DNA of 64,000 bases from Streptantibioticus cattleyicolor NRRL 8057 = DSM 46488 (GTDB lineage Bacteria; Actinomycetota; Actinomycetes; Streptomycetales; Streptomycetaceae), in the NCBI RefSeq assembly GCF_000240165.1, contig NC_017586.1, forward strand, positions 5,779,228 to 5,843,227, given 5' to 3'. Positions 20,308 to 23,674 of the stretch are shown piece by piece; positions within the stretch are counted from its first letter, which is position 1, and each line of letters begins with the position of its first letter. The notes beneath the pieces are model-generated. The model did not search any database, was not told the DNA's origin, and saw only the letters and a program-made list of their open reading frames with translations. Made by a program: the position numbers and the translations under genes.

Positions 20308-21672
<1,365 letters not shown>

Positions 21673-21803: not shown

Positions 21804-21977
21804 TTGTCCCGCGTGAAGACCGTCCTGGCCGCCACCGTCCTGGCCGCGACCGGACTGCTGGCCTCCGGCTGCGCGACCCACCACCACGTGGTGCACCACA
21901 CCGTGGTCCACCACACCGTCGTGCACCACACGGTCACCCACCACGTCGTCACCCACCACGTGGTGCACCACCACTGA
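21804..21977 (+). CDS. Tiny His-rich lipoprotein
   Basis: A 57-residue protein. AAGGAG at 21793-21798 sits five bases before the TTG at 21804; a GTG at 21813 is an alternative. A lipoprotein signal (VKTVLAATVLAATGLLASGC) ends in a lipobox-like LASGC. The 34 residues after the cysteine use only Ala, Thr, His and Val: sixteen histidines in HHH, five HH pairs and HHH, spaced by VV, TVV or VT. This is an obvious metal-chelating tail (Zn, Ni, Cu or Co) anchored outside the membrane. Function is not established; metal storage, buffering or delivery are possibilities. Strong terminators on both sides make it an independent transcript. Confidence 0.72.
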   Translation: MSRVKTVLAATVLAATGLLASGCATHHHVVHHTVVHHTVVHHTVTHHVVTHHVVHHH

Positions 21978-22030: not shown

Positions 22031-22717
22031 CTACTTGCGGCCCAGGCCGAGCCCGGCCAGTGCCGTCGTCCAGTCGCCCGCGATGGCCCGCTGGGCGGCC
22101 TCCAGGGTGACCTGCTTCTTGCAGACCGCGGTGTGCAGCGAGGTCTCCACGGCGTCCTTGTCGTTGTTGGGCCCGGAGTTGGGCCGGTGGCCGGGGGAGG
22201 GCGGCTCCACCCACAGGTTGCGCGGGTCGTTGGGGTCGCCGCCGAGCTGAAGGCTGACCAGGTGGTCGTACTCGGCGTCGCGCATGTTGCCGGTGTAGCC
22301 GTAGGACTTGGCGTTGGCCGCCTTCTCCCGGTTGGTGATGTTCGTCGGCGGCCGGATGTCGGAGGTGTAGCCGCCTTTGCGGCAGATGGTGGAGTCCAGC
22401 GTGGCCTGGGTGACCTTGGGGTTGAGCGCGCCCGGGGTGCACGTCGGGTCGGGCAGCGGTTCCTTGTCCGGGCTGTAGCGGTAGTGGCAGGAGCCGGCCG
22501 GGGGCTGCCGCTGCACCCGGTAGGCCGGCTGTGGTCCGGGGCCCAATGGCAGCGGGCCGCCGGAACGGCCGCCGCCGGAGGCCGAGTTGCCGGAGGAGCC
22601 GCCGCGTCCGGACGACGGCGCGCCGTCGTGCGTGGCGGAGTGCTTGGGCGCGCACGAGGTGAGCAGCAGCCCGGACAGCAGGGCGGCGGCGACGGCGCTG
22701 CGGACGGTGCGGGACAC
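22031..22717 (-). CDS. HNH-like putative lipoprotein
   Basis: A 228-residue exported protein. GTG at 22717 has GAGGAG six to seven bases upstream. The signal ends LLLTSC with lipobox Cys 22, followed by a Gly/Ser-rich linker to about residue 70. The folded part holds paired cysteines (CHYRYSPDKEPLPDPTC; STICRKGG) and an HNH-nuclease-like core: D151-H152 in AEYDHLVSLQLGG, N167 in DPRNLWVEP, then NNDKDAVETSL. It is clearly paralogous to the next gene, sharing PLPDxxCxPGAxNPxVTQ, DIRPPT/TVRPPT and the C-terminal DWTTALAxLGL. A nuclease-type metal site is inferred; the family has no firmly established function that I can name. Confidence 0.75.
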   Translation of the reverse strand: MSRTVRSAVAAALLSGLLLTSCAPKHSATHDGAPSSGRGGSSGNSASGGGRSGGPLPLGPGPQPAYRVQRQPPAGSCHYRYSPDKEPLPDPTCTPGALNPKVTQATLDSTICRKGGYTSDIRPPTNITNREKAANAKSYGYTGNMRDAEYDHLVSLQLGGDPNDPRNLWVEPPSPGHRPNSGPNNDKDAVETSLHTAVCKKQVTLEAAQRAIAGDWTTALAGLGLGRK

Positions 22718-22874
22718 GGCGGACTCCTCAGGGCCGGGGCGGACGATAAGTGTGATCATCTTGCCCGGCCGGGGCGCCGGAGAACCAATCGGTACCCCGT
22801 GCGCCCCCTGATGTCCTCGCCTGCGCGGTCGTGCGCCGGAGCCGCCCCCGGCGCGACTCGCGTGGCGGAACGTT

Positions 22875-23402
22875 TCAGCTCAAGCCCAGCTTGGCCAGTG
22901 CCGTGGTCCAGTCGGTCGCGATGGCGCTGCGTGCGGCGGCCAGGGTGACCTTGTGGGCGCAGACCGCGGTCTTCAGCCTGTTCTCCACGGTGTCCTTGTT
23001 GCCGGCGGTCTCGTTGCCGTAGCGCGGCTCGGGCCACAGGTTGCGCGGGTCCCTCGGGGCGCCGCCGAGCTCCAGCGGGACGAGGTGGTCCTCCTCGTAG
23101 TCGGCGGTGGAGGTGTCCGCGTACCCGTACTGCGCGATCTGTTGCACCTTCAGCGGGTTGGTGTACGAGGTCGGCGGGCGCACGGTGGAGGTCCACCCCG
23201 ACACGCATATGGTCGAGCCTATGGTGCTCTGGGTCACGTCGGGGTTGTACGCCCCCGGCTGGCAGGACGCGTCGGGCAGCGGCAGGTACGCCTGCGAACA
23301 GCTCACGGCGGCGTTCGCCGGCCCGGCCCCGGCCACCAGCGCGCCGGCGAACAGGGCGGCGCAGGAACCGGTGGCGAGCAGATGACGGATCGTTCGGGAC
23401 AT
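22875..23402 (-). CDS. Secreted HNH-like protein, paralogue
   Basis: A 175-residue secreted paralogue of the preceding lipoprotein, 157 bp upstream of it on the same strand. The Sec signal (MSRTIRHLLATGSCAALFAG...) ends ANA at residues 29-31, so it is released rather than lipidated. Core residues: D105-H106 in YEEDHLVPLELGG, N121 in DPRNLWPEP, N135-K136-D137 and E140 in NKDTVENRL; cysteines at 35, 47, 66 and 148 can form two disulfides. This resembles the beta-beta-alpha metal fold of HNH nucleases with the last His replaced by an Asn/Asp-type ligand. An extracellular nuclease is plausible but unproven. Confidence 0.78.
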   Translation of the reverse strand: MSRTIRHLLATGSCAALFAGALVAGAGPANAAVSCSQAYLPLPDASCQPGAYNPDVTQSTIGSTICVSGWTSTVRPPTSYTNPLKVQQIAQYGYADTSTADYEEDHLVPLELGGAPRDPRNLWPEPRYGNETAGNKDTVENRLKTAVCAHKVTLAAARSAIATDWTTALAKLGLS

Positions 23403-23674
23403 GTGGGGGTCTCCCGGAGGTCGGTCGTCACCCCGGCGGAGCGCCAGGGCGTGTCCATGACACCACCGAAGCCGCTACGCGGGTAGACATCCGCCGGTGA
23501 ATTCCGGGTGACCATGCTGTTTCCGTACCGGCCGCGGCGACCGGGCGGAGCCCGTCAACTCCGGTGCGGCGCGCCGCCGTTACGGGGAACCCCGGGAGAA
23601 GGGAACGGCGGCCGGACCCGGGTGTCACCGGGCCGGACGGGGGGAGAGGCCGCCGGGCGCCCGCCCGGCTCCGC

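What the first reader, a model, noticed from the sequence alone, without database searches (positions are those of the whole stretch)
22031..23402. Tandem exported HNH-like proteins: one lipidated, one secreted
Two paralogues share a disulfide-rich N-terminal part and a D-H-LVxLxLGG ... NLWxEP ... NxKDxxE core that looks like a metal-dependent HNH nuclease with altered last ligand. One is tethered, the other released. With the His-rich lipoprotein next door this could be an undescribed extracellular nucleic-acid scavenging or defence unit.
Basis: partly seen in the sequence, partly recalled or inferred. Interest (0 to 1): 0.62.

Follow-up and report, generated by a model that had tools for sequence, protein, structure and literature searches.

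The report
Exported HNH-like nuclease pair, phosphate-linked promoter
Two related proteins sent outside a soil actinomycete, one fixed to the membrane and one set free, look like DNA- or RNA-cutting enzymes of an uncatalogued family, and the free one sits behind a phosphate-starvation-type promoter, so they may recover phosphate from nucleic acids outside the cell.

Summary
Two minus-strand paralogues, 54-57% identical over the domain, encode a secreted protein (22875-23402) and a lipoprotein (22031-22717; better start GTG 22717). Neither reaches a Pfam or NCBIfam cut-off. Relatives are common in actinomycetes and occur on plasmids of Proteobacteria and Deinococcus.

Both models show the beta-beta-alpha His-Me finger plan, catalytic His ending strand 1. 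E-x-D-H, N and K-D-x-x-E are identical in 104 of 104 aligned relatives (102 distinct); in a wider set with viral contigs, D and E of the last motif hold in 54 of 56.

New here: the secreted gene has a conserved promoter, PHO-box-like repeats (window GGTCACC-N4-ATTCACC) beside a core TCTACYCGCRTAG and a downstream TGTCATG. The PHO unit beat 300 of 300 scrambled units. The lipoprotein clade lacks it (0 of 11 reach 12 of 14).

The paralogues are separate old lineages, adjacent in 3 of 80 fetched genome loci. The His-rich lipoprotein is unlinked elsewhere.

Best reading: a tethered-plus-released extracellular nuclease pair, the released one under PhoP, scavenging phosphate. Activity, metal and PhoP binding are untested. 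A defence unit has little support.

The parts
22875..23402 (-). CDS of the secreted copy (175 aa; signal peptide 1-31, mature 144 aa)
   Evidence: relatives; model pLDDT 96.8
22983..23090 (-). His-Me finger core of the secreted copy, mature D74-H75 ... N90 ... K105-D106-x-x-E109
   Evidence: invariance in 104 of 104 rows; beta 71-75, beta 91-95, helix 102-117
22031..22717 (-). CDS of the lipidated copy, start GTG 22717 preferred over ATG 22759 (228-aa precursor)
   Evidence: GAGGAG upstream and LLTSC lipobox read in the sequence; lipoprotein clade in the tree
22652..22654 (-). lipobox Cys codon of the lipidated copy
22145..22267 (-). His-Me finger core of the lipidated copy (D-H ... N ... K-D-x-x-E)
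23496..23513 (-). PHO-box-like direct repeats GGTCACC-N4-ATTCACC (12 of 14 match to GTTCACC x2), 3' end 93 nt before the ATG
23475..23487 (-). conserved promoter core TCTACCCGCGTAG (family consensus TCTACYCGCRTAGA, a TCTA-N6-TAGA inverted repeat; the window reads TAGC, so its repeat is imperfect)
   Evidence: at least 12 of 14 in 43 of 92 loci, 0 of 670 controls; single perfect composite site in the genome
23456..23462 (-). downstream conserved element TGTCATG; its GTCATG lies 13-14 nt after the 13-nt core in the sites listed

Best explanation
The two genes encode exported metal-dependent nucleases of an uncatalogued His-Me finger (HNH-like) family. The secreted copy is released; the other is held at the outer face of the membrane by a lipid and a roughly 40-residue flexible linker. 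Proposed catalysis: H75 is the general base, D74 and an acidic residue on the helix (D106 and/or E109) hold one divalent metal, N90 braces the loop, and C35-C117 form a stabilising disulfide. Under phosphate limitation PhoP binds the direct repeats upstream of the secreted gene and turns it on; the released enzyme cuts environmental DNA or RNA, and fragments are broken down further near the cell, perhaps helped by the tethered copy, so that phosphate is recovered. Shown here by computation: export signals, predicted fold, invariant active site, conserved PHO-box-like promoter of the secreted gene. Inferred: nuclease activity, metal, substrate, PhoP binding, and division of labour.
For: Fold: AlphaFold model of the secreted copy pLDDT 96.8 with strand 71-75 (H75 at its end), strand 91-95 and helix 102-117; lipidated copy, same order of elements, core blocks mostly 88-98 with one at 79, first 30 residues below 60. 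Second-look alignment: 9 of 10 entries listed are nucleases or complexes with an HNH domain for the secreted copy, 5 of 5 (two of them the same protein) for the lipidated one, all at low Z, 3.9 or less; where 'HNH' is not in the title I class them from memory. Profile comparison with 26 HNH (PF01844) domains: score 33.4, probability 75.5%, against a best of 20.6 in 100 column shuffles, with D, H and N in register. PHROG 'HNH endonuclease' families are hit by up to 26 of 56 members (phrog_589, best E 1.4e-4). E72, D74, H75, N90, W92, K105, D106, E109, C35, C117: 104 of 104 rows. Export: hydrophobic export stretch in 99 of 104 rows by a crude test. PHO box: 12 of 14 in the window; 13 of 92 upstream regions outside the lipoprotein clade reach 12 (9 of the 13 on the coding strand), against 0.9% of 335 random stretches; after collapse (69 regions) the unit GTTCACC beats 300 of 300 scrambles; anchored on the core, the unit peaks at -14, with a lesser peak at -25, 11 nt away. 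In this genome 138 sites reach 12 of 14, against 17 for the reversed pattern, and one of the 11 best lies upstream of pstS. Precedents read as passages: C. glutamicum NucH, presumed secreted nuclease with phosphorylated PhoR binding its promoter (PMC3353115); B. subtilis YhcR, NucA and NucB reclaim eDNA phosphate (PMC11458576).
Against: I found no activity, metal or PhoP-binding data for this family in the papers I searched. Foldseek against the PDB gave nothing significant (best E 3.7, a pyocin DNase), VIA Z values are in the range the tool calls uninformative, and no Pfam or NCBIfam model passes its cut-off for the window proteins (best E among 56 members for an HNH-type model 0.0042). The classical third ligand (H or N on the helix) is absent, and 2 of 56 rows of the wider set carry N at position 106 and 2 carry A at position 109. 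The PHO-box unit is degenerate in many loci: only 27 of 92 reach p 0.05 in their own shuffles, and the three highest scores (14) lie on the opposite strand in lipidated rows, two of them identical copies. In the anchored profile offsets -1 and -2, which overlap the core itself, score above -25. Of the 11 best PHO-like sites in the genome I looked at the neighbours of 5; only pstS was plainly a phosphate gene. The lipoprotein clade shows no such box (0 of 11), so joint control of the pair is not shown. Orthologous promoters are related, so loci are not independent.
Confidence: 0.6

Rival explanations
1. Developmental or autolysis nucleases: the pair degrades the organism's own DNA released when substrate mycelium dies, chiefly as part of the developmental programme and not as a phosphate-starvation response.
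For: Streptomyces nucleic-acid recycling after cell death is proposed in PMC7244524 (passages). A second conserved element (TCTA-N6-TAGA plus TGTCATG) in the promoter suggests another regulator.
Against: The PHO-box-like repeats point to phosphate. The family also occurs in Proteobacteria and Deinococcus, which do not share that development. The two readings overlap.
Confidence: 0.17
2. Surface barrier against incoming DNA (phage, plasmid, transformation), the tethered copy in particular.
For: A membrane-tethered nuclease would meet incoming DNA at the cell surface; members sit on plasmids (56 records) and on 22 viral contigs. In two of nine annotated plasmid regions defence-related genes lie within a few kb: a restriction-type DNA methyltransferase and an AbiEii-family gene, a Lar restriction-alleviation gene.
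Against: No PADLOC match in six proteins of the region; no recurrent defence gene across the nine plasmid regions; the secreted copy's promoter looks phosphate-linked.
Confidence: 0.1
3. Antibacterial nuclease toxin aimed at competitors.
For: Nearest solved folds include bacterial toxin nucleases (pyocin AP41 DNase, Rhs2-CT).
Against: No delivery or receptor domain is seen in either the 144-aa or the 207-aa mature protein, and close neighbours are not conserved; the lipidated paralogue keeps all catalytic residues, so it is not a decayed immunity copy.
Confidence: 0.05
4. A non-catalytic exported protein that keeps the fold for binding nucleic acid or metal.
For: The standard third metal ligand is missing and no activity is known to me.
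Against: D74, H75, N90, K105, D106 and E109 are identical in 104 of 104 rows, a degree of constraint expected of an active site.
Confidence: 0.08

Closest known systems
Corynebacterium glutamicum NucH (PhoS-PhoR regulon; PMC3353115, passages read)
   Same: Presumed secreted nuclease of an actinobacterium whose promoter is bound by the phosphorylated phosphate-response regulator.
   Different: No sequence comparison was made here; NucH itself is described as presumed. Nothing in the passages read mentions a lipidated partner.
Bacillus subtilis YhcR, NucA and NucB (PMC11458576, passages read)
   Same: Several exported nucleases, at least one of them anchored at the surface, reclaim eDNA for its phosphate: the same logic as proposed here.
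   Different: YhcR is sortase-anchored and Ca-dependent (paper); no sequence comparison was made here. The anchor in this window is a lipobox.
His-Me finger (HNH/Endo VII) superfamily, e.g. Gme HNH nicking endonuclease 4h9d, Rhs2-CT, Sda1 and pyocin AP41 DNase
   Same: Beta-beta-alpha arrangement, catalytic His at the end of strand 1, Asn in front of strand 2.
   Different: Low structural scores; helix motif is K-D-x-x-E; compact exported domain with an invariant Cys pair; no family model fits.
GmrSD_C / DUF1524 (PF07510)
   Same: Another HNH-like family present in related actinobacteria (16 of 21 genomes).
   Different: Profile comparison is at shuffle level (score 13.2, profile of only 9 sequences) and no match is found in this genome.

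Membership tests
His-Me finger nuclease superfamily | Two strands joined by a loop, then a helix, with the catalytic His at the end of the first strand (definition from PMC10902643, passages) | tested here: met
   Predicted only: strand 71-75 ending at H75, strand 91-95, helix 102-117; lipidated copy likewise, H128 ends strand 125-128; H invariant in 104 of 104 rows.
His-Me finger nuclease superfamily | One bound catalytic divalent metal and nucleic-acid hydrolysis | not testable with these tools
   No coordinates were available for distance measurement and no assay can be run.
Classical HNH (PF01844) | Score over the curated Pfam cut-off | tested here: not met
   No PF01844 match reported for either window protein up to E 1, nor among the families matched by A2 members up to E 0.1; a distant plasmid relative reaches 13 of 21.4 bits.
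Classical HNH (PF01844) | Third motif residue H or N on the helix | tested here: not met
   The helix carries K-D-x-x-E; the residue before K is mostly S, D, T, N or P. D, H and N of the first two motifs do align.
GmrSD_C / DUF1524 (PF07510) | Family profile similarity | tested here: not met
   hhalign score 13.2, below the best of 100 shuffles, 19.2, with a thin profile (9 of 20 loci gave a usable row); no Pfam hit.
Endonuclea_NS_2 (PF13930) and HNH_5 (PF14279) | Score over the curated cut-off | tested here: not met
   The window secreted protein reaches 14 bits against a PF13930 cut-off of 27 and has no HNH_5 row; among 56 members the best E values are 0.0062 (12 members) and 0.0042 (8 members), cut-offs not shown for members.
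PhoP (Pho) regulon of Streptomyces | Direct repeats of GTTCACC with an 11-nt period in the promoter (PMC7244524 and PMC4415409, passages) | tested here: met
   12 of 14 in the window; enrichment and periodicity over relatives; pstS of the same genome as positive control. Secreted gene only; degenerate in many relatives.
PhoP (Pho) regulon of Streptomyces | PhoP binding and phosphate-dependent expression | not testable with these tools
   Needs EMSA or ChIP and RT-qPCR.
Known anti-phage defence systems (PADLOC-DB 2.0.0) | Match to a model | tested here: not met
   0 families for six proteins of the region at E 0.01.

The most novel reading that the evidence does not exclude
A previously uncatalogued exported nuclease family with its own active-site variant (E-x-D-H ... 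N ... K-D-x-x-E) runs a two-site extracellular nucleic-acid harvesting system in actinomycetes: a PhoP-controlled released enzyme and an anciently diverged lipid-anchored paralogue. The released enzyme's promoter carries, besides the PHO box, a dedicated operator (TCTA-N6-TAGA plus TGTCATG) for a second, unknown regulator that in this genome has no other clear site.
Probability: 0.35. Interest if true: 0.6.

Novelty: new variant of a known kind. Interest (0 to 1): 0.42.

Why it matters
Phosphate is often limiting in soil and nucleic acids are one organic source of it (general knowledge). If right, this names an actinomycete tool for reaching it, ties an unannotated protein family to the phosphate response that also controls antibiotic production, and offers a small, probably disulfide-stabilised secreted nuclease with a changed metal site. 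It also gives a clean, testable promoter with an element of unknown regulator.

Tried and rejected
Defence or scavenging 'unit' with the His-rich lipoprotein: rejected, no linkage in the five other genomes that hold it. Recent tandem duplication: rejected, the lipoprotein clade is a separate starred group of 12 rows, 100/99. GmrSD_C membership: not above shuffles. Sequence search of the PDB: no hit for the single sequence; for the profile only a pyocin DNase at E 0.99. Phage collection: no match, though 22 viral contigs carry relatives. Sigma-70 promoter and intrinsic terminator scan: nothing. Literature: 'secreted HNH' with Streptomyces and nuclease (0 papers), 'NLWPEP' (0 papers), the promoter core strings (the four full 12-base forms have no occurrence in the 20 papers listed, of 224 that hold any of the six strings, the rest not looked at), and other wordings (listings only, apart from the passages cited) showed no description of this family in the held open library; papers outside it were not searched. 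The papers asked for are not held. (first hhalign) used antisense rows by mistake and is replaced, in which 32 HNH loci gave 26 rows (3 missed, 3 duplicates). One search used a wrong frame for the C39-like protein and a DinB stretch without its own start; the C39-like query was rerun with no hit. One search missed lipoboxes in L099, L103 and L106 and flagged L074 wrongly; corrected by hand. Dropped before counts: the L067 fragment (all family counts), L033 (upstream too short). Structure searches that list no other family do not exclude one.

Full report
What is there. Two minus-strand genes lie at 22875-23402 and 22031-22759. The first encodes a 175-aa protein with a Sec signal ending in an A-x-A site, giving a 144-aa, 15.4-kDa mature protein with four Cys. 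The second is better started at GTG 22717, six bases after GAGGAG; it then has a lipoprotein signal ending LLTSC and a 207-aa mature part that begins with a Gly/Ser-rich linker. The domains are 54% identical in a local alignment of 153 columns. The window lies in an 8.1-Mb genome of two contigs; among named relatives only Streptantibioticus ferralitis (L075) shares the neighbourhood closely; the species itself is not named. Only these two copies are found in the genome.

The family. A scan of one genome per species found 144 relatives, 80 kept, mostly Streptomyces, Kitasatospora, Streptacidiphilus, Amycolatopsis, Kutzneria and Actinomadura. Of 41 related genomes, the window's own included, 21 match the lipoprotein query, which picks up both types; one of the 21 (G015) is a weak match over the N-terminal part only. 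Of 119 genomes drawn over the phylum, also including the window's own, 7 match the profile, so the spread is patchy. Plasmid records add Sphingomonas, Sphingobium, Methylocystis, Methylocella, Paraburkholderia, Burkholderia, Mycolicibacterium and Deinococcus (56 records, 40 listed). Of the 40 listed copies 30 are 'hypothetical protein', one 'hypothetical conserved protein', two (Methylocella) 'HNH endonuclease', and seven bear no annotation. Neither window protein reaches a Pfam or NCBIfam cut-off. Among 56 members, weak matches fall on Endonuclea_NS_2, HNH_5 and PHROG HNH endonuclease families. A crude hydrophobicity test finds an export stretch in 99 of 104 rows; two of the five misses have short N-terminal parts. 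The 22 relatives on viral contigs show signal or lipobox-like N-termini in most cases by eye.

Fold and active site. With 56 sequences AlphaFold gives pLDDT 96.8: strand 71-75, strand 91-95, helix 102-117. H75 ends the first strand and N90 precedes the second, which is the His-Me finger plan as described in PMC10902643 (passages read). The lipidated copy gives the same order with a low-confidence N-terminal linker. Foldseek against the PDB gives no significant match; in the VIA second look 9 of 10 and 5 of 5 entries are nucleases or complexes with an HNH domain (partly classed from memory), at Z 3.9 or less, so the agreement of kind is telling and the scores alone are not. Foldseek against predicted viral proteins finds three significant matches, two of them named HNHc domain proteins (E 1.9e-7 and 4.2e-6) and the best unnamed. 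A profile of 26 HNH domains aligns with D74, H75 and N90 in register, score 33.4 against at most 20.6 in 100 shuffles. In 104 rows (102 distinct) E72, D74, H75, L79, G82, G83, N90, W92, K105, D106, E109, C35, C117 and W134 do not vary, in the lipoprotein clade (11 rows) as in the others (93 rows). In the more distant A2 set, which includes viral contigs, D106 holds in 54 of 56 rows (N in two) and E109 in 54 of 56 (A in two); in the plasmid copy L133 (translated) the motif reads D-L-W and K-N by eye, so some distant members are altered. Which of D106 and E109 replaces the usual H or N ligand is my inference; I had no coordinates.

Two old lineages. A tree of 108 rows puts the window lipoprotein in a starred clade of 12 lipoproteins (100/99) that includes a Mycolicibacterium plasmid copy, and the window secreted protein in a different starred clade of 13 (98/92). 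Lipidation also appears outside that clade (L080-L082, L098, L099, L103, L106, L108); three label changes are needed on the tree, two forced by starred branches. So the pair is not a recent tandem copy. Both types lie side by side in 3 of the 80 fetched genome loci (L007, L009 divergent; L075 same direction) besides the window; loci hold at most 5 kb on each side and some are shorter, so this is a lower bound. Neighbouring genes are shared at over 60% identity only with L075, and in part with L090, both near kin; other loci give only 27-40% matches.

The promoter. I scanned 300 nt upstream of 92 copies outside the lipoprotein clade for two GTTCACC units 11 nt apart, the Streptomyces PHO box as stated in PMC7244524 and the 11-nt rule in PMC4415409 (passages). 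13 of 92 reach 12 of 14 (9 of them on the coding strand) against 0.9% of 335 random stretches; 27 of 92 pass p 0.05 and 14 of 92 p 0.01 in their own shuffles; the window scores 12 (GGTCACCCGGAATTCACC). Of the 11 lipoprotein-clade genes none reaches 12 or p 0.05. These 92 include the lipidated rows of other lineages, and starts were placed by homology. In 69 upstream regions left after removing similar ones, GTTCACC beats all 300 scrambled units (mean 9.70 against 8.59, s.d. 0.17, highest 9.25; 18 regions at 11 or more against a mean of 1.1 and a maximum of 8). In this genome 138 sites reach 12 of 14 against 17 for the reversed pattern; one of the 11 best lies upstream of pstS, a positive control, while the other four of the 11 that I looked at have no plain phosphate gene beside them. 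By that density a chance site on the right strand in 300 nt has a probability of about 0.3%.

A second element. De novo counting showed 7-mers of the core in 29 to 37 of 92 upstream regions and TGTCATG in 38. The core TCTACCCGCATAGA matches 12 or more of 14 in 43 of 92, none of 670 control stretches; because the core came from these loci, this is description rather than an independent test. GTCATG follows the 13-nt core after 13-14 nt. Among 1.44 Mb of loci the composite is found almost only upstream of this family (two weaker listed places, in L034 and L047, lie elsewhere), including plasmid copies L134 and L135 and viral-contig copy L110. The window genome has one perfect site and four at three mismatches, near the control count of two. 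Anchored on the core, the PHO unit scores highest at -14 (z about 4) and again at -25 (z 2.3); offsets -1 and -2, which overlap the core, lie between. My reading: TTCACC of the second repeat serves as -35 and TAGAYN at the end of the core as -10, with PhoP over the -35, and the inverted repeat TCTA-N6-TAGA (imperfect in the window, TAGC) as a site for an unknown regulator. This is inference; the consensus sigma-70 scan found nothing.

How it probably works. Low phosphate activates PhoP, PhoP drives the secreted nuclease, extracellular DNA or RNA is cut, and the lipid-anchored paralogue may cut fragments at the surface. The parallel in B. subtilis, where a wall-anchored and two other nucleases reclaim eDNA phosphate (PMC11458576, passages), and in C. 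glutamicum, where phosphorylated PhoR binds the promoter of a presumed secreted nuclease (PMC3353115, passages), makes this ordinary as biology but new as a family. The lipoprotein's own control is unknown.

Verdict. The finding is real and the nuclease reading is likely; the extra claim of a defence unit has little support. The promoter evidence moves the function towards phosphate scavenging. Confidence in nuclease fold and activity about 0.85; in phosphate scavenging as the main role about 0.6.

Noticed in passing
window 21813-21977 (+): A 54-aa lipoprotein made mostly of His with Val and Thr. It is a real small family: 6 of 41 genomes match at E 0.01 (the window's own included), up to 75% identity. 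In the five others it is on another contig, 434 kb away, or in a genome without a full nuclease match; in G015 (L140) it lies about 1.1 kb upstream of the acyl-CoA dehydrogenase with no nuclease between. Metal-binding is a guess.
   Followed up: partly
window 23456-23487 (-): TCTA-N6-TAGA-type repeat plus TGTCATG, strongly conserved in promoters of the secreted family and nearly unique to them; regulator unknown.
   Followed up: partly
window 20308-21672 (+): Exported C39-like peptidase family protein (PF13529, E 9.6e-29) near the pair; not found in the flanks of relatives.
   Followed up: no
L067 5539-5655 (-): C-terminal fragment of a second family gene on the opposite strand next to an intact one, probably a decayed copy.
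   Followed up: no
L083 (record titled Thaumarchaeota MAG) and L109, L110 (viral contigs): A copy in a record labelled archaeal (perhaps a binning error) and copies on contigs called viral that keep the same promoter core.
   Followed up: no
G020: Some copies in a fragmented draft genome have in-frame stops: gene decay or sequencing error.
   Followed up: no
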